A stretch of 64,000 bases of DNA, from positions 62,001-126,000 of the forward strand of contig DASYKU010000048.1 of NCBI GenBank assembly GCA_035995165.1. Direction: 5' to 3'. A model generated the notes under the pieces. That model saw only the letters and a program-made list of their open reading frames with translations. It made no database searches and was not told the origin of the DNA. The translations under genes were made by a program, and so were the position numbers. Shown in pieces: positions 9,377 to 31,976 of this stretch. The stretch comes from Mycobacteriales bacterium. Lineage in GTDB: Bacteria; Actinomycetota; Actinomycetes; Mycobacteriales; CADCTP01. Position 1 is the stretch's first letter. The number at the start of each line of letters is the position of its first letter.

Positions 9377-9387
9377 GGGTACTCCTG

Positions 9388-11892: not shown

Positions 11893-11941
11893 CCGTACGG
11901 TTTCGGCATGGACGAGGGCCTGGCGCGGGGGATGATCCGGA

Positions 11942-14777: not shown

Positions 14778-15302
14778 ATGACCAGCACGATGGAGCCCGC
14801 GATCGCCGCTCCGGTGACGCCTGCGAACACCGTCCTCAGCGACCTGGTGGACGCGATCGAGACGTACCCGACGACGTACCTGACCGTCGAGATCTTCGAC
14901 GTCGACCCGCCCGGGACCGGTACCGGGATCAACGAGGCCGAGGACATCACCTGCAAGGTGCGCGTCCACAACTCCGGCCCGCTGAACGTCCTGCAGCTGA
15001 GGCTGCTCGTCACCGGCGAGGCCGGCTCCGACGGCGTGCGGTTCCACGACGACACGGCCTTCAGCCCCTCGCTGTTCAGCACGCCGATCGAGCTGGTGCC
15101 GGCGCACATGCAGGACGGGGACTGGGTGGAGACGCCGGAGCACTACCACTTCAAGGCCGGCGCCGTCAGCGGCGGCAGGGTCGACCTCGTCGGCGTCTCC
15201 GTCGACACCTGGAACGCCGACCTCGAGCACCCGCTCACGGCGCACAGCGACCCGGACCCGTCGGTCGGGGACACGCTGTCCAAGTCCGTGCTGAGGGCCT
15301 GA
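14778..15302 (+). CDS. Hypothetical protein with predicted beta-sandwich
   Basis: A 174-residue soluble protein that I do not recognise. The middle part (DITCKVRVHNSGPLNVLQL) alternates like a CARDB/Ig-like strand pattern and the rest is acidic and strand-rich, with no signal peptide, no cysteine pair and no catalytic signature. A purine-rich site (GAGGGGGAAG) precedes the ATG. The next gene starts one base after its stop, so the two are co-translated. It may be a carrier, chaperone or structural partner for the downstream enzymes; this is inference. Confidence 0.6.
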   Translation: MTSTMEPAIAAPVTPANTVLSDLVDAIETYPTTYLTVEIFDVDPPGTGTGINEAEDITCKVRVHNSGPLNVLQLRLLVTGEAGSDGVRFHDDTAFSPSLFSTPIELVPAHMQDGDWVETPEHYHFKAGAVSGGRVDLVGVSVDTWNADLEHPLTAHSDPDPSVGDTLSKSVLRA

Positions 15303-15303
15303 C

Positions 15304-17525: not shown

Positions 17526-17718
17526 CGCGCGGCGCGCTGGAGGGCGAGGGCGCCGGGGGCGATCGCCTCCAGCGCCTCTTCCAGGCCGGCCCGGACGGAG
17601 CCGGCCCCGTCGCCGTCGGCCCGCCCCTCGCCGGCCGCCCCCGGGCCGCGGGCGAGGTACTGGTACCAAGGTCCGATTGGTCCTGCGGTACGAGCCCGGC
17701 CGTACGACGATCTGCTGA

Positions 17719-17919
17719 TCAGTCCTCGCTGCTGCGGCGGCCGGCCACGTACTCGGCCAGGCGGGGATCGGCGGAGGTGAGCCGGCCGGCCTCCGCTCCC
17801 CCGTCGCACTGGCAGAGCGCGATCGTCACGGCGTCCCGCCGCCGGGCCAGCACCCGCCAGACCGCCCCGGCCGCCTCCCAGCGGACCAGCGTCGCGACCG
17901 GATCGTCGGGCGCGGTCAT
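17719..17919 (-). CDS. Small conserved actinobacterial protein
   Basis: A 66-residue protein whose ATG overlaps the stop of the SufR-like regulator gene (ATGA), so it is translated with it. It reads as a compact fold (LVRWEAAGAVWRVLARR, then VTIALCQCDGG and a tail RLTSADPRLAEYV) and has two nearby cysteines. I recall similar small proteins near regulators in other actinobacteria but know of no function. It might modulate the regulator. Confidence 0.65.
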   Translation of the reverse strand: MTAPDDPVATLVRWEAAGAVWRVLARRRDAVTIALCQCDGGAEAGRLTSADPRLAEYVAGRRSSED

Positions 17920-18608
17920 GACGCCGGGGTGAGGACGACGCAGCAGCGGCCGGGCGCGGGCGCCAGCGCGACCTGCGGGCAGTGCGGCGTGAGGGTGGCG
18001 GCGACGCCGCCGACGAGGGCCTGGTTCATCCGGCAGACCAGGTCGGTCTGGGTCCGGGCCAGCGAGTGGAACGGGCAGTTGGCCAGCACGACCCGGCCCT
18101 CCTCGGCCCGCGGCTCGTAGCCGTGCCCGGCCAGCACCGAGGCGGCCAGCTCCAGGGCCGAGCCCGCGGACGCCGGGTGTCCCCCGGCCGAGACCGCCGC
18201 CGCGCCCAGAGCGCCGCCGTGGTCGGCGGCGAGCCGGTCCAGCGCGACCATGACCGGCTCGCCGGAGCCGGCCGAGGCGGCGATCGCGTCGGCCATGAGC
18301 CGCCCGGCCAGCTCGTACTCGCGGTCGGGCAGGGAGACGGTGATCTCCCGGTCGGCCCGCCGGTAGAGCTTGGAGGTCCGGCCGGCACCGGGTCCGCTGC
18401 GGCCGCCGACCCGCGCGTACCCGGTCTCCAGCAGGCCCTCGGCCTCCAGCCGGTCGAGGTGGAACTTGGCCTGGTGGCGGGCGATCCCGGCGCCGGCCGC
18501 GGCCTGGTCCCGGCTCACCGGCTCGACCTGGGCGCAGACGTAGAGGTAGAGCCGGCGCCGGACCGGGTCGGCCAGCGCCCCGATCCCGGCCACGTCCCGC
18601 TCCCGCAC
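17916..18608 (-). CDS. SufR-like HTH regulator with C-terminal cysteines (copy 1)
   Basis: A 230-residue repressor-like protein. An N-terminal winged helix (DPVRRRLYLYV, then DQAAAGAGIARHQAKFHLDRL) is followed by a linker and a C-terminal domain with a C-x13-C pair (NCPF...LVC) and a later CC pair. SufR uses three similarly placed cysteines for an Fe-S cluster, so redox or iron sensing is plausible but unproven. A related copy lies at 31284-31976; together they bracket the cytochrome maturation locus. It is divergent from that locus across a perfect 15-bp inverted repeat, its probable operator. Confidence 0.82.
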   Translation of the reverse strand: MRERDVAGIGALADPVRRRLYLYVCAQVEPVSRDQAAAGAGIARHQAKFHLDRLEAEGLLETGYARVGGRSGPGAGRTSKLYRRADREITVSLPDREYELAGRLMADAIAASAGSGEPVMVALDRLAADHGGALGAAAVSAGGHPASAGSALELAASVLAGHGYEPRAEEGRVVLANCPFHSLARTQTDLVCRMNQALVGGVAATLTPHCPQVALAPAPGRCCVVLTPAS

Positions 18609-18635
18609 CGGCGCCTCCTCTAAAAGAGATAGGTC

Positions 18636-18668
18636 TTGACGTTAGAGAGCCGCGCTCTCTAACGTCAA
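18636..18668. promoter_or_regulatory. Perfect 15-bp inverted repeat, probable operator of the SufR-like regulator
   Basis: TTGACGTTAGAGAGC (18636-18650) and its exact inverse (18654-18668) are separated by three bases. Each arm starts with TTGACG, a good -35 hexamer, pointing into the opposite gene, so both divergent promoters would be covered by one dimer. Weaker symmetry extends outward (TCTAAAAGAGA near 18619 against TCTCTTAGA near 18677). The half-site core CGTTAGA also occurs before the cytochrome gene and before the second regulator copy. Confidence 0.75.
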
Positions 18669-18700: not shown

Positions 18701-19129
18701 ATGAGCGCCGATCTGCCCGACGACCTGAAGGACCCCGCCTTCCAGGCGTACGCGCTGCTGCGCAGCGTCTTCACGGTCGCGCCGATCCTGTTCGGCCTGG
18801 ACAAGTTCTTCAACGTCCTCACCGACTGGACCGCCTACCTCGCACCGTGGATCGACCGCCTCGTGCCGGGCGACGCCGCCGACGCGATGCACGTCGTCGG
18901 CGTCGTCGAGATAGCGGCCGGCGTCCTGGTCGCGGTCGCGCCGCGCATCGGCGCCTACGTCGTGGCGCTCTGGCTGGCCGGCATCATCCTCGACCTGCTC
19001 ACCCTCTCCGGCTTCTACGACGTGGCCCTGCGGGACTTCGGCCTGCTGGTCGCCGCGCTCGCCCTCGGCCGGCTGGCCCAGGCCCGCTACGTGCGCGCCG
19101 GGCACGGCGTCAAGGCCGGCGTCCGGTGA
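18701..19129 (+). CDS. DoxX-like membrane protein
   Basis: A 142-residue membrane protein with about four hydrophobic segments: near 18-35 (LLRSVFTVAPILFGLDKF), 62-80, 85-103 and 109-125. The opening R-x-x-x-x-x-x-P-x-L-F-G-x-x-K-F is the pattern seen in DoxX/DoxD-like proteins linked to thiosulfate or quinone redox chemistry, though the family is poorly understood. It is the first gene after the operator, and its stop overlaps the GTG of folE, so it belongs to the same operon. Confidence 0.75.
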   Translation: MSADLPDDLKDPAFQAYALLRSVFTVAPILFGLDKFFNVLTDWTAYLAPWIDRLVPGDAADAMHVVGVVEIAAGVLVAVAPRIGAYVVALWLAGIILDLLTLSGFYDVALRDFGLLVAALALGRLAQARYVRAGHGVKAGVR

Positions 19130-19683
19130 CGAACCTGGAGGTCGCCGCCCGCGCGGCGGAGGAGTTCCTGGAGGCCCTGGGCATCTCGACCGACGGGCCC
19201 GGGTTGCGGGACAGCCCGGCCCGGATGGCCCGGGCGTACGCGGAGATGCTCACCCCGCGCAGCTTCGAGCTGACCACCTTCCCCAACGACGAGAAGTACG
19301 ACGAGCTCGTCGTGGTCAAGGACATCCCGGTCCAGTCCCTGTGCGAGCACCACCTGCTCCCGTTCACCGGCGTCGCGCACGTCGGCTACCTGCCCGGCGA
19401 CCGGATCCTGGGGCTGTCGAAGCTCGCCCGCGTGGTCGAGCTGTTCGCGCGCCGGCCGCAGGTCCAGGAGCGGCTCACCCAGCAGGTCGCGACCTGGCTC
19501 GACGACCACCTCGTGCCGCAGGGCGTCGGCGTCGTGGTCGAGGCCGAGCACAGCTGCATGTCGTTGCGGGGCGTCCGGGCGGCGGGCGCCGTCACCCGGA
19601 CCTCCGCCCTGACCGGGACGATCCGCAGCAACCCGGCCACCCGGTCGGAGTTCCTCGCCGCGCTCCCCCGGACCGCGGCATGA
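19126..19683 (+). CDS. folE: GTP cyclohydrolase I
   Basis: A 185-residue FolE. Zn ligands are present in SLCEHHLLPF (Cys and His, near residues 68-70) and EHSCMSLRG (Cys near 141); the GTP-binding region with RDSPARMARAY and LGLSKLARVVE is conserved. It converts GTP to 7,8-dihydroneopterin triphosphate, the entry to folate and pterin cofactors. Its length is normal for the short form. Overlaps at both ends (GTGA with the DoxX gene, ATGA with the reductase) tie it to this operon. A pterin requirement in cytochrome maturation is not established, so the role here is unexplained. Confidence 0.92.
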   Translation: MTNLEVAARAAEEFLEALGISTDGPGLRDSPARMARAYAEMLTPRSFELTTFPNDEKYDELVVVKDIPVQSLCEHHLLPFTGVAHVGYLPGDRILGLSKLARVVELFARRPQVQERLTQQVATWLDDHLVPQGVGVVVEAEHSCMSLRGVRAAGAVTRTSALTGTIRSNPATRSEFLAALPRTAA

Positions 19684-20867
19684 GCGCCGGCACGGTCGTC
19701 GTCGGCGGTGGCCTGGCCGCCGCCCACACGATCTCGACGCTGCGCGACCACGGGTACGCCGACCCGATCACGCTGATCGGCGAGGAGCAGGAGCTGCCGT
19801 ACGAGCGGCCCGCGCTGTCCAAGGACTACCTGCTCGGCAAGACCGGCGAGCTGCAGGTCCACGACGCCGGCTGGTACGCCGACCACCAGGTCGACGTCCG
19901 GACCGGGGTCCGGGCCACCGCCGTCGACCGGGACGCGCACCTGGTCCGGGTCGGCTCCGAGCTGATCCCGTACGAGGACCTGGTGCTCGCGACCGGCGCC
20001 CGGCCCCGGCTGCTCCCGATCCCCGGCGCCGACCGGCCCGGCGTGCACACGCTGCGGACCCGGGCCGACAGCGACCGGCTCCGCGAGGCGCTGGACCGCG
20101 ACGAGCGCTGGGTGATCATCGGCGGCGGCTGGATCGGCCTGGAGGTCGCGGCCGCGGCGATCGCGCACGGTCGCGTGGTGACCGTGCTGGAGCACGCGTC
20201 GCTGCCGCTGCAGCGGGTGCTCGGCGACCGGCTCGGCCGCTACTTCCTCGACCTGCATCTCGGCAACGGCGTCGACCTGCGGACCGGCAGCGAGGTCCGG
20301 GCGATCGAACGGTCCGGGCCCGGCCTGCGGGTGCACGCGAGCGACGGGTCGATCGACGCCGACACGGTCGTGATGGCGGTCGGGGCCGCGCCGAACACCG
20401 AGCTCGCGGCCGGGCTGGCGGTGGACAACGGCATCGTCGTGGACCGGCAGCTGCGCACCGCCGACCCGCACGTGCTCGCCGCCGGCGACGTCGCGACCGC
20501 GGACAACACCGCGCTGGGCCGGGCATTGCGGGTGGAGCACTGGGACAACGCGATCCGCCAGGGCCGCCTCGCCGCCCGCACGATCCTCGGCACCGGCGAC
20601 GAGTACGACTGGCAGCCGTACTTCTTCACCGACCAGTACGACCTCGGCATGGAGTACGTCGGCCACGGCACCCCGGGCGATCAGGTCCTGATCCGCGGCA
20701 GCCTGCTCAGCGGCGAGTTCATCGCCTTCTGGGCCGACGGGGAGCGGATCACCGCCGCGATGAACGTCAACCTCTGGGACGTCAACTCCGAGCTGCGCGG
20801 GCTGGTCGGGCGCAGCGTCCCGGCCGCCCGCCTCACCGACATCCATGTCCCGCTCACCGACCTCTAG
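19680..20867 (+). CDS. FAD-dependent ferredoxin reductase-like oxidoreductase
   Basis: A 395-residue two-dinucleotide-fold flavoprotein. It has the FAD motif VVVGGGLAAAH near residues 6-16, YERPALSKDYL near 40, LATGARPRLLP near 103, the NAD(P)H motif IIGGGWIGLEVA near 143, and AAGDVA near 264. The domain plan is that of rubredoxin/ferredoxin reductases such as those serving P450s and Rieske oxygenases. No CxxC redox disulfide is seen, so it is not a thioredoxin reductase. It could supply electrons to the exported cytochrome chain or to reductant for CcdA; both ideas are inference. Confidence 0.88.
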   Translation: MSAGTVVVGGGLAAAHTISTLRDHGYADPITLIGEEQELPYERPALSKDYLLGKTGELQVHDAGWYADHQVDVRTGVRATAVDRDAHLVRVGSELIPYEDLVLATGARPRLLPIPGADRPGVHTLRTRADSDRLREALDRDERWVIIGGGWIGLEVAAAAIAHGRVVTVLEHASLPLQRVLGDRLGRYFLDLHLGNGVDLRTGSEVRAIERSGPGLRVHASDGSIDADTVVMAVGAAPNTELAAGLAVDNGIVVDRQLRTADPHVLAAGDVATADNTALGRALRVEHWDNAIRQGRLAARTILGTGDEYDWQPYFFTDQYDLGMEYVGHGTPGDQVLIRGSLLSGEFIAFWADGERITAAMNVNLWDVNSELRGLVGRSVPAARLTDIHVPLTDL

Positions 20868-20878
20868 CCGGGCCCGCG

Positions 20879-21607
20879 GTGTCGGCCACCGGCTTCGCGC
20901 TGGCCTTCGGCGGCGGCGTCGTCTCCTTCCTGTCCCCGTGCGTGCTGCCGCTGGTCCCGGCGTACCTGTCGCTGACCTCCGGAGTGCCCGGCCGGGTCGG
21001 GGCCGTGCGGGCCGGGGCGCTGTTCTGCGGCGGGTTCGCGGTCGTGTTCGTCCTCCTAGGACTGTCGGCGACGGCGCTGGGGTCGGTGCTGCTGCGCCAG
21101 CAGGTCCCGGTCACCCGGCTGGCCGGGGTCGCGGTCGCGGGCCTGGCGGTCGTGCTGGCCCTGCCGGCGGTCTCGGCCCGCCCGGCGGGCCGGTTCGCCG
21201 GGCGGGACCTCCGGTTCCGGCCGCGGCTGGCCCGGCTCGGGGCCTGGGGTGCGCCGGTGGCCGGGGCGGCGTTCGGGTTCGGCTGGACCCCGTGCATCGG
21301 GCCGGTCCTGGGCTCGGTCCTCGCGGTCGCGGCCGACCAGCGCCGGCTCGGCGCGGGCGTGCTGCTGCTCAGCGCGTACGCGGCCGGGCTGGCGGTGCCG
21401 TTCCTGATCGCGGCGCTGGCGCTGGACCGGTCGCTGGTCGCGTTCCGGTTCCTCCGGCGGCACTCGGCCGTGCTGGCGCTGGGATCGGCCGCGGTCCTCG
21501 GGACGTACGGGGTGCTGCTGGCCTTCGACCGGCTGGACAGCGTCACCGTGGCGCTCCAGCACGGGATGACCACGCTCGGCCTCGGCCGGCTGGTCGGACT
21601 CGGGTGA
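20879..21607 (+). CDS. ccdA: Cytochrome c biogenesis thiol transporter CcdA
   Basis: A 242-residue six-helix membrane protein. The two redox cysteines sit in FLSPCVLPLVP near residue 21 and GWTPCIGPVLG near 141, the invariant S/T-P-C motifs of CcdA/DsbD. It carries electrons from cytoplasmic thioredoxin across the membrane to reduce the apocytochrome thiols via CcmG/CcmH. GTG start, 11 bases after the reductase stop; ccmA follows seven bases downstream. Confidence 0.93.
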   Translation: MSATGFALAFGGGVVSFLSPCVLPLVPAYLSLTSGVPGRVGAVRAGALFCGGFAVVFVLLGLSATALGSVLLRQQVPVTRLAGVAVAGLAVVLALPAVSARPAGRFAGRDLRFRPRLARLGAWGAPVAGAAFGFGWTPCIGPVLGSVLAVAADQRRLGAGVLLLSAYAAGLAVPFLIAALALDRSLVAFRFLRRHSAVLALGSAAVLGTYGVLLAFDRLDSVTVALQHGMTTLGLGRLVGLG

Positions 21608-21614
21608 GCCCGTC

Positions 21615-22277
21615 GTGATCGACCCCCTCGCACGGACGACGAGCGCGGTCGGCCTGGTCCGGGTGACGCGGCTGTTCGACGGCCTGGCCGCGGTCAGCCA
21701 GATCAGCCTGGAGCTCGCCCTCGGCGAGACGGTCTGGCTGCGCGGCTCCAACGGCTCCGGCAAGTCCACGCTGCTGCGGCTGGTCGCGACCGCGATCTCC
21801 CCCACGTACGGCGGCGGCACGGTGCTCGGCCACGACCTCACCCGCGGCCGGGCCGCGATCCGCGCCGAGACGGACCTGGTCGGCCACCAGACCCGGCTCT
21901 ACGACGACCTCACCGCCGCGGAGAACCTGCGCTTCGCCGCCGACCTGCACGGCCTGGATCCCGGCGGGATCCCGGCGGCGCTGGACCGGGTCGGGCTGCA
22001 GGAGGTCGCGACGGTCCGGGCGGCCAGCTTCTCCCAGGGCATGCGGCAGCGCCTCGTGCTGGCCCGCTGCCTGCTGCGGGCGCCGCGGCTCATCCTGCTC
22101 GACGAGCCGTACGCGGGGCTGGATCCGGACGCCCGCACCGTCGTCGACGACCTGCTCGCCGGCGCCCGCGGAGCCGGCCGCACGATCGTGATCGCCAGCC
22201 ACGACCCACCCCCACCCCGGTTCGTGGACCGGACCCTGCTGATGGACGGCGGCCGGCTCTCGGGCGGGCCACCGTGA
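21615..22277 (+). CDS. ccmA: Heme exporter ATP-binding subunit CcmA
   Basis: A 220-residue ABC ATPase of CcmA size. Walker A GSNGSGKST is near residues 41-49, the signature FSQGMRQRLVLAR near 137, Walker B LILLDEPYAGLD near 158 and switch His in IASHD near 195. The Y-A-G-L-D form after Walker B is typical of CcmA. Paired with CcmB it drives release of holo-CcmE from CcmC in System I. The stop overlaps the GTG of ccmB (GTGA). Confidence 0.9.
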   Translation: MIDPLARTTSAVGLVRVTRLFDGLAAVSQISLELALGETVWLRGSNGSGKSTLLRLVATAISPTYGGGTVLGHDLTRGRAAIRAETDLVGHQTRLYDDLTAAENLRFAADLHGLDPGGIPAALDRVGLQEVATVRAASFSQGMRQRLVLARCLLRAPRLILLDEPYAGLDPDARTVVDDLLAGARGAGRTIVIASHDPPPPRFVDRTLLMDGGRLSGGPP

Positions 22278-22945
22278 CCGCCCGGGTGATCCGCGCGATC
22301 GCGGCCAAGGACCTGCGGATCGAGCTCCGCAGCCGGTCGGCGGTGAACGCGGTCCTGCCGTTCGCGGCGACGATCCTGCTCGCGCTCGGGTTCGCGCTCG
22401 GGCCCGACCGGCTGCTGCTGCAGCAGACCGCGCCCGGGCTGCTCTGGGTCGCGGCGCTGTTCGCCTCGGTCGAGCTCTGCCATCGGGCGTACCTGACCGA
22501 GGCGGCCAACGGCGCCCTGGAGGGCCTGCTGCTCGGGCCCGCCGACAAGGGAGCCGTCTTCCTCGGCAAGGCCGCGGCCGCGTTCGTCCAGCTGCTGGCG
22601 CTGTTCGTGGTCACCACCGGCATCGTGATCGTGTTGTTCGGGCTGCCGCTCGGGCCGGACCCGGCGCTGCTCGCGCTGACCGCGGTGCTGGGTGTCGCCG
22701 GGCTCAGCGCCATGGGCGCGCTGCTGGGGCTGCTCGCCGTCCAGGGGCGGACCCGGCAGGCGGCGCTGCCGGTCATCGTGCTGCCGCTGGTGACCCCGGT
22801 GATCATCGCCGCGACCCGGGCCACGGTCGCGCTCACCCAGGGCCAGTCGGCCGGCGTGGGCGGCTGGCTGGGGCTGCTCGTCGCGTTCGACGCGGCCTTC
22901 CTGGCCGCCGGCTACCTGGTCTACGGAAACCTGCTCGAAGACTGA
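22274..22945 (+). CDS. ccmB: Heme exporter membrane subunit CcmB
   Basis: A 223-residue membrane protein with six hydrophobic segments beginning near residues 25, 50, 95, 130, 157 and 195, and the CcmB-like opening AAKDLRIELRSR followed by FASVELCHRAYLTEA. The second segment carries G-A-L-E-G-L-L-L, equivalent to the D/N-G-x-L-E-x-L motif of the family. It forms the membrane half of the CcmAB transporter. An 89-base gap with a possible second promoter separates it from the cytochrome gene. Confidence 0.88.
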   Translation: MTARVIRAIAAKDLRIELRSRSAVNAVLPFAATILLALGFALGPDRLLLQQTAPGLLWVAALFASVELCHRAYLTEAANGALEGLLLGPADKGAVFLGKAAAAFVQLLALFVVTTGIVIVLFGLPLGPDPALLALTAVLGVAGLSAMGALLGLLAVQGRTRQAALPVIVLPLVTPVIIAATRATVALTQGQSAGVGGWLGLLVAFDAAFLAAGYLVYGNLLED

Positions 22946-22956
22946 CTCCCGGGCCA

Positions 22957-22991
22957 TTGACAACCCGATGGCGACCGGACACGCTCTAACG
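22957..22991 (+). promoter_or_regulatory. Candidate second promoter with shared CTCTAACG half-site
   Basis: The 89-base gap after ccmB contains TTGACA at 22957 and, 21 bases on, CTCTAACG at 22984-22991. That 8-mer is identical to part of the perfect inverted repeat at 18636-18668. Further along is TTTAGAAAG at 23008. No convincing -10 hexamer is placed at 17 bases, so promoter activity is uncertain; the shared half-site suggests control by one or both SufR-like regulators. Confidence 0.4.
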
Positions 22992-23034
22992 ACCAGATTG
23001 ACTAGCTTTAGAAAGCAGATCGAGGTGACGTGGC

Positions 23035-24399
23035 ATGGGCCGCTCGAGAAGGATCGGCGTCGCCCTGGCGGTCGCCGTGGCCGGAGCACTCACGGCAACG
23101 ATGCTGGTGGCGGTGTCGGCCGGGTTGTCCCCGGTCGCGGCCGGGCCCACCGGCGGGACGCAGAGCGTCGGATCGGGTTCGTCCGCGGTCCGGCCCATCG
23201 ACGCGCTGGTGGCGCAGGGGAAGCAGACCTTCCGGTTCGACACCTTCGGTGACCAGGCGTTCTGGGGCGACACGCTGCACCTGAACCAGGCCATCGCCGG
23301 CGCCGCCAACGGCGGGGTCGGGCCCGGGGTCAGCCCGAGGACCGCGCTGTCGGTCGGGCTCAAGGTCGACGTCGACGCGCTGCCCGGCGCGGTCCGGACG
23401 GCGATCGTGAACGGTCAGGTGAACCTGGACGACCCGGCGGTCACCCTGACCCTGCTCAAGCTCAACTCCGTGGTCGGCGTCAAGGGGATCTTCGACCGCG
23501 CCGGCAAGCTCAACGCGGTCGGCATCGAGTGCGCCCTCTGTCACTCCACAGTGGACAACTCGCTGGCCCCCGGCATCGGGCACCGGCAGGACGGCTGGGC
23601 CAACCAGGACCTGAACATCGGCGCGATCATCGGACTGTCGCCGAACCTGCAACCGGTCGCCTCGCTGCTGCACACCGACGTCCCGACCGTGCACAAGGTG
23701 CTCGACGCGTGGGGACCGGGCAAGTTCGACGCCGAGCTGTTCCTGGACGGCAAGGCTTTCCAGCCCAACGGCACCTCGGCGGCGACGCTGATCCCGCCGG
23801 CGTTCGGGCTGGCCGGCGTGAACCTGCACACCTGGACCGGCTGGGGCTCCATCCCGTACTGGAACGCGTTCGTGGCGATCCTGGAGATGCACGGGCAGGG
23901 GACGTTCTTCGACCCGCGGCTGGACAACGCCACGCAGTTCCCGATCGCGGCTGAGAACGGCTTCGGCCACATCACCGCGAAACCGGACCTGGTGAGCCCG
24001 AAACTGCCGGGCTTGCAGGCGTACCAGCTCTCGTTGAAGGCGCCGACGCCGCCGAAGGGCTCGTTCGACCCGGTGGCCGCGGCCCGCGGGAAGACGCTGT
24101 TCACCGGCCAGGCCGAATGCTCGACCTGCCACGTGGCCCCGACGTTCACCGAACCGGGCGAGAACCTGCACCCCGGCAGCCAGATCGGCATCGACAACTT
24201 CGAGGCCGACCGGTCCCCGACCCACATGTACCGGACCAGCCCGCTGGCCGGCCTGTGGACCCATCAGAAGGACGGCTTCTACCACGACGGCCGCTTCCCG
24301 GACCTGCTCTCGGTCGTCAAGCACTACGACAGCACGTTCCACCTGAAGCTGTCGGCCCGGCAACAGAGCGATCTCGTGCAGTACCTGCTCTCCCTGTAG
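23035..24399 (+). CDS. Secreted di-heme cytochrome c (cytochrome c peroxidase/MauG-like)
   Basis: A 454-residue exported protein with a signal or anchor helix near residues 8-30 and two C-x-x-C-H heme sites, CALCH near 166 and CSTCH near 361. The C-terminal part (RTSPLAGLWTHQKDGFYHDG, then VVKHYD) matches the second-heme half of bacterial di-heme peroxidases; the N-terminal half is unfamiliar. It is the only evident c-type cytochrome here and sits inside the ccm genes, so it is the likely dedicated client. Substrate and electron partners are unknown. The ATG is preceded by GAGGTGACG. Confidence 0.85.
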   Translation: MGRSRRIGVALAVAVAGALTATMLVAVSAGLSPVAAGPTGGTQSVGSGSSAVRPIDALVAQGKQTFRFDTFGDQAFWGDTLHLNQAIAGAANGGVGPGVSPRTALSVGLKVDVDALPGAVRTAIVNGQVNLDDPAVTLTLLKLNSVVGVKGIFDRAGKLNAVGIECALCHSTVDNSLAPGIGHRQDGWANQDLNIGAIIGLSPNLQPVASLLHTDVPTVHKVLDAWGPGKFDAELFLDGKAFQPNGTSAATLIPPAFGLAGVNLHTWTGWGSIPYWNAFVAILEMHGQGTFFDPRLDNATQFPIAAENGFGHITAKPDLVSPKLPGLQAYQLSLKAPTPPKGSFDPVAAARGKTLFTGQAECSTCHVAPTFTEPGENLHPGSQIGIDNFEADRSPTHMYRTSPLAGLWTHQKDGFYHDGRFPDLLSVVKHYDSTFHLKLSARQQSDLVQYLLSL

Positions 24400-24426
24400 T
24401 TCGAACCCCTTGGACAGGAGCCACCC

Positions 24427-25176
24427 ATGCGGCGCTTCTACCGCGTGCTCACCGTGCTCGGCAGCCTCCGCGCCCAGCGGATCCTGGGCTGGTCGACCCT
24501 GCTGGGTCTGCTCGCGACGACGGCGGTCGCGCTGACCGTCGTCCCCGCGGACGCCAACCAGGGCGACGTGCAACGGCTGATGTACGTGCACGTGCCGGCC
24601 GCATGGGTGGCCTTCCTGTCCTTCGGGGTGGTCTTCCTCGGCAGCGTCGCCTACCTCAGGACCGGGCGTATCCACTGGGACCGCATCGCGGTCTCCTCGG
24701 CCGAGATCGGCGTGGTGTTCTGCGCGCTGACGATCGTGCTGGGCTCGCTGTGGGGGCGCCCGGTCTGGGGCACCTGGTGGACCTGGGATCCCCGGCTCAC
24801 CACGACCGCGCTGCTGCTGCTGATCTACACCGGCTACCTCTCGCTGCGGCGGGTGGCCGACAGCCCGGCGCGCCGGGCCCGGTGGTCCGCGGTGGTCGGG
24901 GTGATCGGCTTCGTGGACGTGCCGATCGTGCACATGTCCGTGGTGTGGTGGCGGTCGCTGCACCAGGAGGCGACCGTGCTGCGGCCGGGGTCGCCGACGA
25001 TCGCGGGCAGCATGCTGGCCACGCTGCTGTTCGCGTTCCTGGTCTTCTCGGTCGCGTACGGCTATCTGATGGCGGCCCGGCTGCGGGTCGGGCGGCTGGA
25101 GGAGCGGGGCGCCGTCCCGGTCTCCACGCCGCGGGCCCGCCGTCCCGCCCCGGTGGGGGGTGTCACCGGTGCATGA
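24427..25176 (+). CDS. ccmC: Heme-handling protein CcmC
   Basis: A 249-residue protein with six membrane segments. The tryptophan-rich heme loop is present as WGTWWTWDPRLTTT near residues 117-130. Flanking heme-ligand histidines are in MYVHVPAAW near 58 and VPIVHMSVVWW near 180. CcmC presents heme to the chaperone CcmE. A Pro/Arg-rich tail follows the last helix. It starts 27 bases after the cytochrome gene behind GGACAGGAG, and overlaps ccmD by eight bases. Confidence 0.93.
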   Translation: MRRFYRVLTVLGSLRAQRILGWSTLLGLLATTAVALTVVPADANQGDVQRLMYVHVPAAWVAFLSFGVVFLGSVAYLRTGRIHWDRIAVSSAEIGVVFCALTIVLGSLWGRPVWGTWWTWDPRLTTTALLLLIYTGYLSLRRVADSPARRARWSAVVGVIGFVDVPIVHMSVVWWRSLHQEATVLRPGSPTIAGSMLATLLFAFLVFSVAYGYLMAARLRVGRLEERGAVPVSTPRARRPAPVGGVTGA

Positions 25177-25303
25177 CCTGACCTACGTGGTCGCCGGGTA
25201 CGCCGCGACCGGGGCCGCGCTCGGCGGCTACCGCTGGCGGCTGGCGGTCCGGCTGCGCCGGGCCCGCCGCTACATCGCCACGGTCAGCGGGCGAGAACGG
25301 TGA
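25169..25303 (+). CDS. ccmD: CcmD-like small membrane protein
   Basis: A 44-residue protein (GTG start), short enough to be missed by length cut-offs. It has one hydrophobic helix near residues 5-20 (TYVVAGYAATGAALGGY) followed by a strongly basic tail (RLAVRLRRARRY), the usual CcmD layout with the positive end in the cytoplasm. It overlaps ccmC by eight bases and ccmE by four (GTGA), the standard position for ccmD. CcmD stabilises the CcmC-CcmE complex and helps holo-CcmE release. Identification rests on position, size and topology rather than on strong sequence conservation. Confidence 0.8.
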   Translation: MHDLTYVVAGYAATGAALGGYRWRLAVRLRRARRYIATVSGRER

Positions 25304-25788
25304 CCCAGGAGCCGATCGCCGCGGCGGTGCCGCAGGACACGGCCCCCGCCCGCTGGCTGCACGGAGCCCGGTTGCGGCTGCTGATCGGGCTGGCCGTCAT
25401 CGTGGGCGCGCTGGTCTGGGTCACCGTGCGCGGGCTGACCGGCAGCTTCGTCTACTACCTCACCCCGACCGACGTCGTCACCCAGCACAAGGCGCATGTC
25501 GGCGAGCGGATCCGGCTCGGCGGGTACGTCGTGCCCGGCAGCGTCGGGCACACCACCAGCACGCTGACCTTCACCGTGACCGACGGCACCGACTCGGTGC
25601 CGGTCTCCGACCTCGGCTCGGTGCCGGAGCTGTTCAAGCCCGGCCAGGGGGTCGTGCTGGAAGGCGCCCTCGGCACCGACGGGCGCTTCCATTCCGACAC
25701 GCTGCTGGTCAAGCACAGCGGCGACTACCGGCCGCCGGCGCCGGGCCAGAGACCGCCGAACACCGCCGACCTGGAATCCGGGGGCTGA
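25300..25788 (+). CDS. ccmE: Cytochrome c-type heme chaperone CcmE
   Basis: A 162-residue protein with one N-terminal membrane anchor (about 27-45) and an OB-fold exported domain (VGERIRLGGYVVPGSV, FTVTDGTDSVPVSD, and GQGVVLEGAL). The heme-linking motif is KHSGDY near residue 138: His and Tyr keep the H-x-x-x-Y spacing of proteobacterial CcmE (usually HDENY), with the middle residues changed. It is therefore a His-type, not the Cys-type seen in some archaea and Desulfovibrio. It takes heme covalently from CcmC and hands it to CcmF. Confidence 0.92.
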   Translation: MTQEPIAAAVPQDTAPARWLHGARLRLLIGLAVIVGALVWVTVRGLTGSFVYYLTPTDVVTQHKAHVGERIRLGGYVVPGSVGHTTSTLTFTVTDGTDSVPVSDLGSVPELFKPGQGVVLEGALGTDGRFHSDTLLVKHSGDYRPPAPGQRPPNTADLESGG

Positions 25789-25791
25789 GCC

Positions 25792-27773
<1,982 letters not shown>

Positions 27774-27774
<1 letters not shown>

Positions 27775-28310
27775 TGCGCCGTCGTGTGCTGCTGCTCGCG
27801 CTCGTCGCGGCGCTCGTGGCCGGGGTGGTCGCGGTGCTGTCGACCGGTCTCGGCCGGGACCCCGCCGCGACCGCGTCGCCACTGGTCGGCCGGACCGCGC
27901 CGGACTTCACCCTGTCCGGACTGGACGGCCCGGCGGTGACGCTCTCGACGTTGCGCGGGCAGGTCGTGATCGTCAACTTCTGGGCGTCCTGGTGCGCCGA
28001 GTGCCACGACGAGCAGGACGCGCTCGACCAGACCTGGCAGCGGTACCGGGACGCCGGGGCGGTCGTGCTCGGGGTGGACTTCCAGGACACCACCGACGGT
28101 GCCCGCGACTACGTCCACCAGTCCGGGCTCACCTACCCGGTGGTCGAGGACAAGGACTCCCGGACGGCGCTGGCGTACGGGATCCGCGGCATCCCGGAGA
28201 CGTTCCTGCTCGACCGGTCCGGCCGGATCGTGAACCGGATCATCGGCCGGGTCGACGCCGCCGTGCTGGCCGCGCAGGTCGATCCGCTCGTCCGGACGGC
28301 CGCGCCGTGA
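27774..28310 (+). CDS. ccmG: Thioredoxin-like CcmG/DsbE/ResA protein
   Basis: A 178-residue exported thioredoxin with an N-terminal membrane anchor (about 4-24). The redox site is NFWASWCAECHDEQ near 68-75 (CAEC), the cis-Pro loop is GIRGIPETFLLDRSG near 139-153. It keeps apocytochrome heme-binding cysteines reduced, receiving electrons from CcdA. A Glu in the CxxC (usually PxC in E. coli DsbE, EPC in ResA) is an uncommon choice and may tune the potential. Confidence 0.92.
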
Positions 28311-28813
28311 GCCGGCGCTGGTCGGCCGCCGACCTGCTCGTGGCGCTCGCCGCGCTCGCCGCGGTGGTGACCGTCGGGCTGGTGGCGGCCGGCGGGCACC
28401 GGGCGCCGGCGAGCCGGGCCGCGCAGGTCCAGCAGATCGCGTCCGGGCTGCACTGCCCGATCTGCAAGGACCTCTCGGTCGCCGACTCCCCCGCACCGCT
28501 GGCGCAGCAGATGCGCCAGCAGATCGAGCAGGACCTGGCCACCGGGCAGTCGGCCGACCAGATCCGGACCGGGTTCGTCGCCGCGTACGGGGACTCGGTG
28601 CTGATGTCGCCGCCGCGGCACGGGCTGGCGCGGACCGCGTACTACCTGCCGCTGACCGTCGTCGCGGGCGGCGCGCTGCTCGTGCTGACGTTGCTGCGGC
28701 GCTGGCGGCGACTGTCCACTCCGGACGACTCCGAGGCGCCGCCGCCGTTGTCGGCGGCACAGCGGCTGGCGTTGCGGCGGGCGGTCGAGCGACTGCGGGA
28801 GGAGGAGGGATGA
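28307..28813 (+). CDS. ccmH: Cytochrome c maturation protein CcmH
   Basis: A 168-residue protein with a signal/anchor near residues 8-25, the redox motif LHCPICKDLSVADS near 47-60 (standard form L-R-C-x-x-C-q-n-q-s-I-a-D-S), the following PLAQQMRQQI helix, and a C-terminal membrane helix (about 108-127) before a charged tail. The cysteine pair resolves disulfides on apocytochrome. Overlaps of four bases with ccmG and with the next gene. Confidence 0.92.
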   Translation: MSRRWSAADLLVALAALAAVVTVGLVAAGGHRAPASRAAQVQQIASGLHCPICKDLSVADSPAPLAQQMRQQIEQDLATGQSADQIRTGFVAAYGDSVLMSPPRHGLARTAYYLPLTVVAGGALLVLTLLRRWRRLSTPDDSEAPPPLSAAQRLALRRAVERLREEEG

Positions 28814-30051
28814 CGGCCGAGTCCGACCGGCAGCGGGCACTGCTGCGGCAACTGCGCGACCTCGACGACGACCGCGCCGCCGGCAAGATCACCGATGACG
28901 ACCACCGCCGCCTCCGCGCGCCGCTGGAACGCGCCGCCGCCGCAACCCTCCACCCCGCCAAGCCCCCCGCCGCCGCTGACATCCCGACCCGGCGCCCCGG
29001 CGCCACCGAGACCCCGACCCGGGGCCCCGGCGCTACCGAGACCCCGACCCGGGGGCGTGGTGCCGCCGAGACCGCGACTCGGGGGCGTGGTGACGCCGAG
29101 ACCGCCGAGGCGGCCGCGACCCCCCGGCGCGGGCGGGGCCGCGTACCTGAGCGCAGCAGCGCGACGACGCCTGAGGGCGCGGAGAACGCGGCCGGGGCCG
29201 GGAAGTCTCCGGCGGCTGCGGATGCGGCGGCGGATGCGGCGGCCGGGGCCGGGGGGTCTCCGGCGGCCGCGGATGGGGCGGTGGGACGGCGGGGGACGGC
29301 GGGGGGGCGGCGGAGGCGCCGCGTGGTGACGGTGCTCGCCGCGGCGGCGGCCGTGGCGAGCGTCGCCGTCCTGCTCGCGGGCGCGATCGCGCCGCGCGGC
29401 GCGGGCGAGACGGTGTCCGGGGACGCACCGGCGGCGGCAGCGACGGCGTCGCCGGGTGCCCCGGCCGGCGGATCGGCGGCTCAGCCCGCCGATCCGCCGG
29501 CAGGCAGTCCCGCCGGCCCCGCGGGGCCCGCCACCGGGCCGACGGGAGCCGGGCCGACGGGAGCGGCGGGAGCCGGGCCGACGGGAGCGGCGGGCGCCGG
29601 GCCGACGGACGCGGCGCAGACCGCGACTCCGGAGCAGGCCGCGGCGATCGACACCGCCGCCCTGGACGTCAAGGCGCACCCGAAGGACATCGCGAAGCAC
29701 ATCACGCTCGCCCACGCGTACGCGGACGGCGGCGAGGGCCAGCTGGCCGCGGTCGAGTACCTGGCGATCCTCCGGCTCGACCCCGGCAACGCCGAGGCGA
29801 ACACGGCCCTGGCCCTGCTCGCGTTCGAGGTCGGCCAACCGCAGCAGGCCAAGGACATGCTCGACGCGGTGCTGGCCGCGGACCCGGCCTACCCGGAGGC
29901 GCTCTACGTCCGCGGCCTGGTCCTGCTCTCCGGCCTGCACCAGCCCGCGGCGGCGACCCGGGACCTGCACGCCTACCTCAGCGCGGCGCCGTACGGGTCG
30001 CACCGCACCGCCGCGGAGACCCTGCTCGCGCTGGCCGGCAGCACCCCGTGA
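28810..30051 (+). CDS. CcmI-like TPR protein with repetitive linker
   Basis: A 413-residue protein in the position of CcmI (CcmH C-terminal half). The N-terminus (RQRALLRQLRDLDDDRAAGKIT) matches the cytoplasmic coiled part of CcmI-type proteins; one membrane helix lies near 173-192; the C-terminal ~130 residues form TPRs (HITLAHAYADGGEGQLAAVEYLAIL and ALYVRGLVLLSGL) that would hold apocytochrome C-termini. Two low-complexity stretches flank the membrane helix: a 10-residue repeat near 58-97 and a Gly-Pro-Thr-Gly-Ala-Ala repeat near 244-265. Role by position and architecture. Confidence 0.78.
   Translation: MTAESDRQRALLRQLRDLDDDRAAGKITDDDHRRLRAPLERAAAATLHPAKPPAAADIPTRRPGATETPTRGPGATETPTRGRGAAETATRGRGDAETAEAAATPRRGRGRVPERSSATTPEGAENAAGAGKSPAAADAAADAAAGAGGSPAAADGAVGRRGTAGGRRRRRVVTVLAAAAAVASVAVLLAGAIAPRGAGETVSGDAPAAAATASPGAPAGGSAAQPADPPAGSPAGPAGPATGPTGAGPTGAAGAGPTGAAGAGPTDAAQTATPEQAAAIDTAALDVKAHPKDIAKHITLAHAYADGGEGQLAAVEYLAILRLDPGNAEANTALALLAFEVGQPQQAKDMLDAVLAADPAYPEALYVRGLVLLSGLHQPAAATRDLHAYLSAAPYGSHRTAAETLLALAGSTP
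28981..29100 (+). repeat. Four 30-bp tandem repeats inside the CcmI-like gene
   Basis: Four consecutive 30-base units, each beginning near ACCCCGACCCGG and ending GCCGAG or ACCGAG, encode variants of the decapeptide T-P-T-R-G-P-G-A-T-E. The reading frame is preserved, so copy number can change without breaking the gene. The units lie in the cytoplasmic linker before the membrane helix. Confidence 0.85.
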
Positions 30052-31433
30052 CCGGTCTCGGCTGCGTCTCCGTCGCCGGTTGCCAGGCACCGCTGGCCCT
30101 GCTGGAGCGGCTCGCGTACGGACGGGCCGAGCCGGCCGCCCGGCTGCCGGGACTGCGGGCCGCCGCCGGCGCCCGCGGCCTGGTCGTCCTGTCCACCTGC
30201 CAGCGGGTGGAGCTCTACGGGAGCTGGGACGCCGACCCCGACCCGGAGGCCCTGCTCACCGCGCTCGCGGCCGACCGCGGCGTGCCGGCGGCGGTCGTCC
30301 GGGCGGCCGCGACGACGTACGCGGGCGACGCGGCGGCCCGGCACCTGCTGCGGGTCGCGACCGGTATGGAGTCCTTCGTGCTCGGCGAGACCGAGATCGC
30401 CGGCCAGGTCCGGCACGCGGCCGAGGCCGGCCGGGCCGCCGGTGCCGACGCCGCGCTGGAACGCCTGCTGGCCACCGCGGTCAGCGCCGGCCGGCGCGCC
30501 CACCGGCACACCGGGATCGCCGCCAGCAGCCGCTCGGTCGCGGCGGTGGCCCTGGACGCCGTCGCGGCCGAGCACGGCGGCACCCTCGCCGGCGAACGGC
30601 TGCTCGTGGTCGGCGCGGGCGAGGTCGCAGCCGTCGTGGTGACCCGCGGCGCGGCCCTGGGAGCGCACGTGACGGTCTGCAACCGCACCCGCCGGCACGC
30701 CGCCCGCTTCGCCGCCGCCGGAGCCACCGTGGTCGATCTGGCCGCGCTGCCCGACGGCCTGGCCACCGCGGACATCGCGATCACGGCCACCGCGGCGCCG
30801 CACCCGCTCGTCGACACCGACCTGCTGCGCCGCTGCCGTCCGCACGGCCGGCCGCTGACGCTGGTGGACCTCGCGCTCCCCCGCAACGTGGCCGCGTCCG
30901 TCCGGGACCTGGATTCCGTACGGCTGATCGACCTGGCCGACCTGCGCGCCGACGGGACCACCAGCGCGACCGCCGCCGCCGCGCTCACCGCCGAGATCGC
31001 CGCGGTCGAGGCGGTCATCGAGGCCGAGCTCGCCCGCTACCGCCGCTGGGAGGCCGGTCGCGGCGCCGGCCCGGCGCTGCGCCGGATGCGCGCCGACGCC
31101 GAGGAGGTCGCCCGGCAGGAGATCGCCCGCGCCGCCGTCCCGCCCGAGGTCCGGCCGGCGCTGGAACGGGCCGTGCTGCGGACCGTGCACCGGCTCGCGC
31201 ACGCGACGACCCGCGAGCTGCTGGCCGCCGCCCAGGCCGGCGACGACGCCCTCGTCGCCCGGCTGGGTTCCTTGTACGGCCCGTCAGTGCCCGACGACGC
31301 GCACGCAGCAGCTGGACTCGGCGATCCGTTCCTCGGCCGGCCGCCCCTCGACCCGCAGCGACCGCAGCTGCGCCCCCTCCAGCAGGCCCCGGACCAACGC
31401 GGCGTTCATCCCGCAGACGAGCTCGCGGTGTGA
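30048..31433 (+). CDS. hemA: Glutamyl-tRNA reductase, divergent, in the ccm operon
   Basis: A 461-residue GluTR. The catalytic cysteine lies in STCQRVE near residue 50 (usual form STCNRxE), the glutamate-recognition stretch is GMESFVLGETEIAGQ near 107-121, the NADPH fold starts at LLVVGAGEVA near 187, and a helical dimerisation tail follows. The family's S-H-[KR]-T-A-P opening is replaced by AGCQAP. It makes glutamate-1-semialdehyde, the first heme precursor. GTG overlaps the previous stop. The natural end should be near 31285; the last ~50 codons run antisense through the convergent regulator gene. Confidence 0.88.
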   Translation: MTGLGCVSVAGCQAPLALLERLAYGRAEPAARLPGLRAAAGARGLVVLSTCQRVELYGSWDADPDPEALLTALAADRGVPAAVVRAAATTYAGDAAARHLLRVATGMESFVLGETEIAGQVRHAAEAGRAAGADAALERLLATAVSAGRRAHRHTGIAASSRSVAAVALDAVAAEHGGTLAGERLLVVGAGEVAAVVVTRGAALGAHVTVCNRTRRHAARFAAAGATVVDLAALPDGLATADIAITATAAPHPLVDTDLLRRCRPHGRPLTLVDLALPRNVAASVRDLDSVRLIDLADLRADGTTSATAAAALTAEIAAVEAVIEAELARYRRWEAGRGAGPALRRMRADAEEVARQEIARAAVPPEVRPALERAVLRTVHRLAHATTRELLAAAQAGDDALVARLGSLYGPSVPDDAHAAAGLGDPFLGRPPLDPQRPQLRPLQQAPDQRGVHPADELAV

Positions 31434-31976
31434 CTCCGACACCTCCCGGAAGACGCAGTTGCGCAGCACGAGGTCGCTGCCGCGGGACTGCGGCTCGAAG
31501 CCGAGCTGCTCGAGCTGGCGCAGCGCGGCCTCGCGGCGGCCGTTCTTCGTCCGGGCCTGCGCCTTGACCTCGGCACCGAGCAGGTCGCCGACGGTTCCGG
31601 CCACCTGCGCCAGCGTGGCCGCGCCGTCCCCGCCGGTGTCCCCGGACAGGGCGGTCGCCATCATCGAGGCGGCCAGCGCGTACCGGGTCTGGGGCAACTC
31701 GATGGAGAACGACCGCGCCGAGGCCGTGTAGACCTTCGCCGTCCGCCCGGCCCCGGGCCCGACCCGGCCGGTCAGCCGCCGGTAGTCGACGTCCAGCAGG
31801 CCGGCCTGCGCCATCCGGTCCAGGTGGAAGGCGGCCAGCTTGACCGAGATCCCGGCGTCGTTCGCGGCGTCCTCCCGGCCCACCGGCTCGCGGCGGTCCC
31901 GGACGTAGCGGTAGAGCCGTTGCCGGACGGGCTCGGCCAGCAACGCGATCGCGGCCAGGTCCTCCGCGCTGTTCAT
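31284..31976 (-). CDS. SufR-like HTH regulator with C-terminal cysteines (copy 2)
   Basis: A 230-residue homologue of the regulator at 17916-18608, with the same length and domain plan: winged helix (EPVRQRLYRYV, then LAAFHLDRMAQAGLL), the GRVGPGAGRTAKVY wing, and cysteines in NCVF...LVC (C-x13-C) and SSCC near the end. Its last 150 bases overlap the 3' end of hemA on the opposite strand. The 56-base region before its ATG holds CGTTAGAAC (minus-strand TTCTAACG), sharing the core of the big inverted repeat. An Fe-S or metal-sensing function is inferred from SufR. Confidence 0.8.
   Translation of the reverse strand: MNSAEDLAAIALLAEPVRQRLYRYVRDRREPVGREDAANDAGISVKLAAFHLDRMAQAGLLDVDYRRLTGRVGPGAGRTAKVYTASARSFSIELPQTRYALAASMMATALSGDTGGDGAATLAQVAGTVGDLLGAEVKAQARTKNGRREAALRQLEQLGFEPQSRGSDLVLRNCVFREVSESHRELVCGMNAALVRGLLEGAQLRSLRVEGRPAEERIAESSCCVRVVGH

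What the first reader, a model, noticed from the sequence alone, without database searches (positions are those of the whole stretch)
18701..31433. Complete System I cytochrome c maturation locus in an actinomycete, built around one di-heme cytochrome
All System I parts are present in order: CcdA, CcmA, B, C, D, E (His type), F, G, H and an I-like protein. Established knowledge: Gram-positive bacteria generally use System II (ResB/ResC), and System I is typical of proteobacteria, deinococci, some archaea and plant mitochondria. Here the ccm genes enclose one exported di-heme cytochrome and are joined by overlaps to hemA, folE, a flavoprotein reductase and a DoxX-like protein. Inference: a self-contained redox module that makes heme precursor, exports heme and matures its own cytochrome.
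Basis: partly seen in the sequence, partly recalled or inferred. Interest (0 to 1): 0.88.

Follow-up and report, generated by a model that had tools for sequence, protein, structure and literature searches.

The report
Imported heme-attachment kit with its cytochrome
An actinobacterium that already has the usual Gram-positive machine for attaching heme to cytochromes also carries a second, different machine, wrapped around one two-heme protein and apparently acquired together with it from distant relatives, which suggests that an enzyme and its own assembly line can travel as one package.

Summary
Window 18701-31433 encodes a complete, intact System I set (ccdA, ccmA-I, His-type CcmE) on one strand, with one exported di-heme cytochrome between ccmB and ccmC. 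CcmC and CcmF are System I proteins, not ResC. The premise needs correcting: CcmF occurs in 175 of 396 genomes sampled across the phylum, but in only 3 of 61 genomes of the window's order, its own included.

What is unusual: (1) The same assembly has System II (ResB, ResC/CcsA, CcdA- and ResA-like genes) and QcrC, its usual client. (2) The closest match is in another class (G088/G073): same order ccmAB-cyt-ccmCDEFGHI, cytochrome 66% and CcmF about 62% identical. The CcmF tree groups the window with them, away from its order and class mates, which indicates lateral transfer. (3) The cytochrome belongs to an uncharacterised CCP/MauG/RoxA-like family, also on proteobacterial and Gemmatimonadota plasmids, sometimes near GTP cyclohydrolase genes or four-cysteine regulators.

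Best reading: a transferred maturation cassette dedicated to one redox-stress di-heme enzyme. Client specificity and enzyme activity are untested.

The parts
17916..18608 (-). HTH_20 (ArsR/SufR-like) regulator 1, divergent from the operon; four conserved C-terminal Cys
   Evidence: PF12840 35.0 bits over cut-off 27; four Cys columns invariant in 5 of 5 aligned proteins
18636..18668 (.). perfect 33-nt palindrome (15-bp arms, 3-nt centre) between regulator 1 and the operon; candidate operator
   Evidence: function inferred
18701..19129 (+). small membrane protein (reader: DoxX-like; no DoxX profile match); 72% identical over 104 residues to a G088 protein in the same context
19126..19683 (+). 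second folE, GTP cyclohydrolase I
   Evidence: PF01227 211.2 bits; TIGR00063 196.3 over cut-off 181.6; better-scoring copy at G000:C19
19680..20867 (+). ferredoxin-reductase-type FAD protein (Pyr_redox_2 + Reductase_C)
20879..21607 (+). ccdA
   Evidence: PF02683 38.5 bits over cut-off 27.1
21615..22277 (+). ccmA
   Evidence: ABC_tran 96 bits; TIGR01189 123.6, just under cut-off 131.6; 56% identical to G088 CcmA
22274..22945 (+). ccmB
   Evidence: PF03379 120.7 bits
22957..23012 (+). candidate promoter (TTGACA at 22957) and 28-nt imperfect inverted repeat (22985-23012; 43% self-complementary) before the cytochrome; a better 28-nt repeat (71%) lies at a similar place before the G088 cytochrome
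   Evidence: suggestive only, no control run
23035..24399 (+). exported di-heme cytochrome (CALCH, CSTCH), CCP/MauG/RoxA-like superfamily, uncharacterised family
   Evidence: export inferred from the N-terminus
24427..25176 (+). ccmC
   Evidence: PF01578 117.3 bits; TIGR01191 170.3 vs CcsB model 46 bits
25169..25303 (+). ccmD (44 aa, GTG start)
   Evidence: position, size, 64% identity over 25 residues to G088; no Pfam match
25300..25788 (+). ccmE, His type (VKHSGDYRPP)
   Evidence: PF03100 94.3 bits; motif
25792..27774 (+). ccmF
   Evidence: PF16327 197.1 bits, PF01578 103.8 bits
27774..28310 (+). ccmG, thioredoxin-like (WCAECH)
   Evidence: AhpC-TSA 90.9 bits; DsbE family 99.1 bits, under cut-off
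28307..28813 (+). ccmH
   Evidence: PF03918 89.6 bits
28810..30051 (+). ccmI-like TPR protein
   Evidence: TPR models only; same position in G088/G073
30048..31433 (+). second hemA, divergent glutamyl-tRNA reductase (STCQR instead of STCNR)
   Evidence: TIGR01035 243.6 over cut-off 209.55; of 4 genomes searched only G000 has two copies; motif
31284..31976 (-). HTH_20-like regulator 2, convergent with and overlapping hemA; 46-48% identical to the regulator downstream of ccmI in G088/G073
   Evidence: PF12840 23.8 bits, under the 27 cut-off

Best explanation
A laterally acquired System I maturation cassette dedicated to one di-heme enzyme, kept beside a resident System II.

Shown by sequence: a complete System I set with intact catalytic motifs; the cytochrome inside it; a System II set and its usual client QcrC elsewhere in the same assembly; the same ccmAB-cyt-ccmCDEFGHI-regulator arrangement, followed by a flavoreductase, in another class; a CcmF tree that groups these two against the host's own order and class.

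Inferred: CcmABCD exports and loads heme on CcmE, CcmFHI attaches it to the two CxxCH sites of the cytochrome, CcdA/CcmG keep the apo-cysteines reduced, and HemA-2 raises 5-aminolevulinate supply. Two four-cysteine SufR/ArsR-like repressors sense Fe-S, redox or NO stress and release the operon. The product is an extracytoplasmic di-heme peroxidase-type enzyme fed by the flavoprotein reductase or the respiratory chain. FolE-2 is a stress-backup or partner pteridine enzyme. System II continues to serve QcrC.
For: Complete Ccm set and motifs. ResB at C92, 455.9 bits with the Pfam model (no NCBIfam match); ResC/CcsA TIGR03144 259.3 over cut-off 187.6 and actinobacterial QcrC 335.9 over 200; CcdA- and ResA-like genes next to ResB.

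Same module in G088 (L126) and G073 (L127, contig starts inside the cytochrome): CcmF about 62%, CcmC 69%, cytochrome 66-70%, regulator 46-48%, reductase 42-44%. CcmF tree: window + G088 + G073 SH-aLRT 99, inside an 8-row group (100) with other-class families f64 and f29; G007/G022 (same order) and G120 (same class, with Tersicoccus) lie elsewhere.

Cytochrome found in 2 of 396 phylum genomes and 1 of 397 order genomes, the window's own included each time (mostly at most four first-look candidates scored per genome), and in 0 of 80 named ccm loci with the flanks held. Left half (regulator, small membrane protein 72%, folE 65%, reductase 45%) also a unit in G088 on another contig. Same-genus G001 has no CcmF and no cytochrome but matches the contig at window 43811-49342 at 81-84%, so the contig is the host's.
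Against: No experiment shows that the cytochrome is the only client. The regulators' signal is inferred from four conserved cysteines; the window regulators match no NCBIfam model at E <= 0.01 and regulator 2 is under the HTH_20 cut-off. The module has the flanks' base composition (GC 0.748 against 0.751 and 0.744), so the transfer is old or from a similar donor. The left flank (4000-18650) has only gene-family-level matches in G001 (best 66-77%), much as in G088 and G073, so host backbone is shown on the right side only. Only three genomes carry the linked cytochrome, two of them from one genus. Whether G088 also has System II was not tested. The three rhizobial cytochrome loci read show no ccm, folE or such regulator beside it, judged by eye.
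Confidence: 0.6

Rival explanations
1. Ordinary System I of deep actinobacteria, inherited or acquired as a general maturation system; the cytochrome between ccmB and ccmC is a chance neighbour.
For: CcmF_C in 175 of 396 phylum genomes; 19 of 80 named ccm loci have the colinear order ccmA-B-C-E-F-G-H without the cytochrome, and 2 of them (L060, L065, Acidimicrobiales) have ccdA about 0.2 kb in front and a relative of regulator 1 behind; 9 of 80 loci hold a relative of regulator 1 or 2.
Against: Linkage of this cytochrome to ccm is kept in two lineages at 62-70% identity; the cytochrome was found in no other genome of the two samples; CcmF is rare in the order; System II is also present.
Confidence: 0.2
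2. System I here also matures, or has taken over, QcrC and any other cytochromes, with System II redundant.
For: System I machines accept many CxxCH substrates (established knowledge); both systems are in one assembly.
Against: 58 of 61 genomes of the order lack CcmF although c-type cytochromes are expected in them (established knowledge; ResB was not searched there), and ResB/ResC here look intact.
Confidence: 0.1
3. Binning artefact: the ccm contig, or the ResB or QcrC contig, comes from another organism (162 contigs, 3.91% contamination).
For: No single contig carries both systems. Tetranucleotide profiles do not settle it: loci of other genomes correlate with the module as well as the genome's own contigs do (G022 0.92, G007 0.90, C92 0.89, C114 0.86).
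Against: The ccm contig is 145,781 bases and matches the same-genus genome G001 at 81 and 84% over two stretches totalling about 5.4 kb and at 79% over 1.1 kb; module and flanks have like profiles (0.93-0.95).
Confidence: 0.07

Closest known systems
System I cytochrome c maturation (CcmABCDEFGHI), as in proteobacteria, Thermus/Deinococcus (recalled; control genomes) and Acidimicrobiia
   Same: All components, motifs and the A-B-C-(D)-E-F-G-H order
   Different: A di-heme cytochrome sits between ccmB and ccmC; joined to second hemA and folE copies, a flavoreductase and a pair of regulators; co-exists with System II in one assembly
Dedicated cytochrome c synthases such as NrfEFG (System I) or the Wolinella CcsA/NrfI isoenzymes (System II) (passages of PMC12285233 seen; otherwise recalled)
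   Same: A maturation factor encoded beside, and devoted to, one multiheme enzyme
   Different: Those are extra synthases for unusual heme sites on top of a general system of the same type (recalled); here a whole heme exporter plus synthase of the other type sits with one client that has two ordinary CxxCH sites
Bacterial di-heme peroxidases / MauG / MbnH / RoxA superfamily
   Same: Profile of six homologues matches peroxidase structures (3o5c, E 3.3e-06; 1eb7; 1nml) and hydrazine synthase gamma (5c2v) over the C-terminal heme domain; NCBIfam CytoC_perox and MauG in 6 of 6 members, MbnH and RoxB in 4 of 6
   Different: The window protein is far below the cut-offs (24.5 of 150, 25.4 of 443.85); heme sites 196 residues apart; N-terminal part unmatched by these structures; activity unknown
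SufR-type Fe-S repressors
   Same: Winged helix plus four conserved C-terminal cysteines in 5 of 5 aligned; the Gemmatirosa member matches TIGR02702 SufR at 27.9 bits
   Different: Under the SufR cut-off of 178.8; window regulators match no NCBIfam model at E <= 0.01; no suf genes seen beside them

Membership tests
System I (Ccm) | CcmABCD heme exporter with WWD-type CcmC | tested here: met
   (CcmD by size, place and G088 match only)
System I (Ccm) | CcmE with heme-binding His (or Cys) | tested here: met
   PF03100; VKHSGDYRPP, His; of 50 loci in which the motif could be read (duplicates and the window's own loci included) 37 have His and 13 Cys
System I (Ccm) | CcmF with CcmF_C domain, WWD and four His; CcmH with CxxC; CcmG thioredoxin | tested here: met
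   role of P-His/TM-His from passages of PMC10746174; that these four are those His is inferred from their conservation
System I (Ccm) | attaches heme to cytochrome c | not testable with these tools
   needs heme stain of mutants
System II (ResBC/CcsBA) | ResC/CcsA-type WWD protein and ResB in this locus | tested here: not met
   window CcmC and CcmF score 46 and 41 bits with the CcsB model against 170 and 411 with CcmC and CcmF models; ResB and ResC lie on another contig
Di-heme cytochrome c peroxidase / MauG superfamily | C-terminal heme domain homologous to bacterial di-heme peroxidases | tested here: met
   weak but consistent in 6 of 6 members
Di-heme cytochrome c peroxidase | family score over curated cut-off | tested here: not met
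   24.5 bits against 150 for CytoC_perox; no Pfam family over cut-off
Di-heme cytochrome c peroxidase | distal heme ligands and peroxidase activity | not tested
   structure model too poor
SufR | HTH plus Fe-S-binding cysteines | tested here: inconclusive
   four cysteines conserved; no SufR model match for the window regulators

The most novel reading that the evidence does not exclude
This is one form of a wider but unstudied stress cassette whose constant part is a new di-heme enzyme family tied to GTP cyclohydrolase I, a flavoreductase and a four-cysteine repressor. Where the cassette entered a System II host it travelled with a private copy of the whole System I assembly line, so client and maturation machine form one transferable unit that bypasses the host's own system.
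Probability: 0.3. Interest if true: 0.75.

Novelty: new variant of a known kind. Interest (0 to 1): 0.58.

Why it matters
How Systems I and II came to be distributed among bacteria is called unexplained in a 2022 review (PMC9145763, passage seen). An assembly holding both, with System I wrapped around one client and shared with another class, offers a natural case for testing whether maturation systems spread with their substrates. It also points to an unnamed di-heme protein family with a partly recurring neighbourhood (GTP cyclohydrolase I, flavoreductase, cysteine-rich regulator) that could be assayed directly.

Tried and rejected
AlphaFold of the cytochrome from a single sequence gave mean pLDDT 33.2, so no fold search was run. 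A scan of viral contigs with the cytochrome profile found no relative. phmmer of the cytochrome alone against the PDB gave one chance match; the six-member profile did better. The raw CxxCH pattern over the genome (83 matches, against 265 for the reversed pattern) is uninformative, so the number of cytochromes in the genome is not established: QcrC and the window protein are the two seen, and searched only one cytochrome family, which does not detect the window protein. No tRNA in the window and no mobility gene among nine flanking genes scanned, so no integration element was identified. An empty site in G001 could not be located: its matches lie near the ends of its contigs C200 and C427.

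Literature: searches showed, in the titles and abstract starts listed, no paper on co-existing Systems I and II in an actinobacterium or on this cassette. Lists were capped (20 of 22 papers, 15 of 467). Only passages of PMC9145763, PMC12285233 and PMC10746174 were seen.

Rows dropped: the CcmF tree left out six named loci (L002, L004, L015, L032, L033, L127: the window itself or duplicates of genomes kept) and fragments under 450 residues, and kept two identical rows of G007; it is a quick search with SH-aLRT only and is drawn from the midpoint. The WWD tree used 43 rows, partly a random draw from 60 CcmC and 117 CcmF extracted, held the window's own CcmC twice (L124), and had a single long-branched ResC, so it separates CcmC from CcmF but cannot place ResC well.


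Full report
What is there. The finding's coordinates are right. From 18701 to 31433 on the plus strand run a small membrane protein, folE, a ferredoxin-reductase-type flavoprotein, ccdA, ccmA, ccmB, a di-heme cytochrome, ccmC, ccmD, ccmE, ccmF, ccmG, ccmH, a ccmI-like TPR protein and hemA. The Ccm proteins pass Pfam cut-offs, with limits: CcmD matches nothing, CcmA and CcmG pass general ABC and AhpC-TSA models, and the CcmI-like protein passes TPR models only. Several miss the stricter NCBIfam cut-offs, so they are intact but divergent. Motifs are complete: CcmE His in VKHSGDYRPP, WWD motifs in CcmC and CcmF, four CcmF histidines invariant across nine aligned relatives, CPIC in CcmH, CAEC in CcmG. 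Two flanking genes on the minus strand, 17916-18608 and 31284-31976, encode HTH_20-like regulators with four conserved C-terminal cysteines. A perfect 33-nt palindrome (18636-18668) lies between regulator 1 and the operon.

Is it System I? Yes. With the CcsB (System II) model CcmC and CcmF score 46 and 41 bits, against 170 and 411 with CcmC and CcmF models, while the genome's own ResC scores 259.3 over a cut-off of 187.6. In a WWD-domain tree CcmC and CcmF form separate groups at SH-aLRT 99 with the window proteins inside (limits in Tried and rejected).

Two systems in one assembly. ResB is on contig C92 (455.9 bits with the Pfam model; no NCBIfam match), with ResC/CcsA, a CcdA homologue and a ResA-like thioredoxin next to it. 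QcrC, the di-heme subunit of the actinobacterial bc1 complex, is on C114 (335.9 bits over a 200 cut-off), beside COX-III-like, Rieske-like and cytochrome-b-like genes judged by eye. So System II and its usual client are there as well. The assembly is in 162 contigs with 3.91% contamination, so binning error must be weighed. Against it, the 145.8-kb ccm contig matches the same-genus genome G001 at 81-84% over window 43811-49342 and 79% over 41705-42791. The left flank shows only gene-family-level matches. Tetranucleotide profiles are alike in module and flanks (0.93-0.95) but do not discriminate: loci of G022 and G007 correlate with the module at 0.92 and 0.90, C92 and C114 at 0.89 and 0.86.

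Distribution. CcmF_C is found in 3 of 61 genomes of the window's order (G000, G007, G022; same-genus G001 lacks it) but in 175 of 396 genomes across the phylum. All the listed matches except G000 and G120 are from other classes (how many of the sample are from the window's class is not shown). System I is thus common in other actinobacterial classes and rare near the window; the contrast between Gram-positive System II and proteobacterial System I is too coarse.

The same module elsewhere. The cytochrome was found in 2 of 396 phylum genomes (G000 and G088), 1 of 397 order genomes (its own) and 1 of the 3 held genomes of G088's class. In some searches mostly at most four first-look candidates per genome were scored, so distant forms could be missed. 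In G088 the order is ccmA-ccmB-cytochrome-ccmC-D-E-F-G-H-I, a minus-strand HTH_20 regulator, then a divergent flavoreductase. Its genus mate G073 has the same from the cytochrome's last residues onward; the contig starts inside the gene, and one search counts it as a miss. Identities to the window: cytochrome 66-70%, CcmC 69%, CcmF about 62%, CcmA and CcmB 55-56%, regulator 46-48%, reductase 42-44%. A second G088 contig carries regulator, small membrane protein (72%), folE (65%) and reductase (45%) in the window's left-hand arrangement. The window therefore looks like a fusion of two units that also co-occur in G088.

Transfer. In the CcmF tree (114 rows, quick search) the window groups with G088 and G073 (SH-aLRT 99), inside an 8-row group (100) of other-class families f34, f64 and f29. 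CcmF of the order mates G007 and G022, and of the class mate G120 (with Tersicoccus phoenicis), lie in other groups. Together with absence from the same-genus genome, this supports lateral acquisition. Base composition does not mark the module as foreign.

The cytochrome. It matches no Pfam family over cut-off. tblastn over plasmids finds 15 records: Sinorhizobium 6 and Rhizobium 5 (55-58% where most of the protein is covered), Cupriavidus 2 (49-50%), Gemmatirosa 1 (49%) and a weak partial Hymenobacter match (31%). A profile of six members matches bacterial di-heme peroxidase structures and hydrazine synthase gamma over the C-terminal heme domain, and all six match NCBIfam CytoC_perox and MauG, weakly for the window protein. 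It is best called an uncharacterised family of the CCP/MauG/RoxA superfamily.

Neighbourhood of its relatives. Cupriavidus necator N-1 has folE2, GTP cyclohydrolase IB (PF02649, 302.5 bits), about 1.1 kb away, and an ECF sigma factor. Cupriavidus P-10 has a folE2-like protein by eye, an NAD-binding flavoreductase-like protein and a DUF4142 protein. Gemmatirosa has an HTH_20 regulator with the same four cysteines and a DUF4142 protein. Hymenobacter has a sigma factor, histidine kinases and LytTR proteins. The window and G088 have folE (3.4 kb upstream in the window, on another contig in G088), flavoreductases and HTH_20 regulators. Over the five lineages looked at (actinobacterial module, Cupriavidus, Gemmatirosa, rhizobia, Hymenobacter) GTP cyclohydrolase I occurs in 2 of 5, the four-cysteine regulator in 2 of 5, and an ECF-type sigma factor in 2 of 5. 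The three rhizobial loci read show no folE and no such regulator, judged by eye; one has a different FAD protein with a Rieske domain. No random-gene control was run, so this is a lead only.

Extra copies. hemA: G000 has a better-scoring copy on C34 (176.7 bits) and the module copy (111.5 bits, STCQR in place of STCNR); G001, G088 and G073 have one each. folE: G000 has one on C19 (252.5 bits) and the module copy (210.7). G001 also has a second folE, 46% identical to the module's and in a cluster that looks by eye like queuosine-precursor genes, so a second folE alone is not a mark of the module.

Mechanism. Most likely, Fe-S, redox or NO stress inactivates the four-cysteine repressors and the operon is expressed. 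HemA-2 raises heme supply. CcmABCD loads CcmE, and CcmFHI with CcdA/CcmG attaches heme to the cytochrome. The holoenzyme works outside the membrane as a peroxidase-like or oxidising di-heme enzyme. Shown by sequence: the parts, their intactness, the two systems in one assembly, the conserved linkage and the tree. Inferred: signal, repression, client exclusivity and enzyme activity.

Verdict. Real, correctly read as System I, somewhat over-sold in its premise, and made more interesting by the co-resident System II and the cross-class match. I score it a new variant of a known kind.

Noticed in passing
window 31284-31433: hemA and the convergent regulator gene overlap by 150 nt, so the last ~50 HemA residues are read antisense to the regulator, as if hemA had been inserted between ccmI and the regulator (in G088 the regulator follows ccmI directly).
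   Followed up: partly
window 27990-28007: The CcmG active site reads WCAECH, itself a CxxCH motif; 3 of 64 CcmG-like loci read, the window's own included, have C..CH there. G088 and G073 have WCAECR.
   Followed up: partly
L062: Tersicoccus phoenicis (Micrococcaceae) has a System I locus whose CcmF is sister to that of G120: possibly a separate entry of System I into the window's class.
   Followed up: no
L085: Bacillus sp. DNRA2 carries CcmF with ccmA-, B-, C- and G-like genes: System I-type genes in a Bacillota genome.
   Followed up: no
L160 6647-7486, L162 6357-7175, L161 7470-8159: folE2 near the cytochrome homologue on Cupriavidus plasmids, and a four-cysteine HTH_20 regulator near it on a Gemmatirosa plasmid.
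   Followed up: partly
L005 (G395:C133): A second CcmF in an actinobacterial genome with a far higher CcmF_C score (E 3.9e-126) and a very long branch (2.43), perhaps a contaminating contig.
   Followed up: no
window 45871-48213: Large DUF5682 protein (930.8 bits) within the flank conserved with G001.
   Followed up: no
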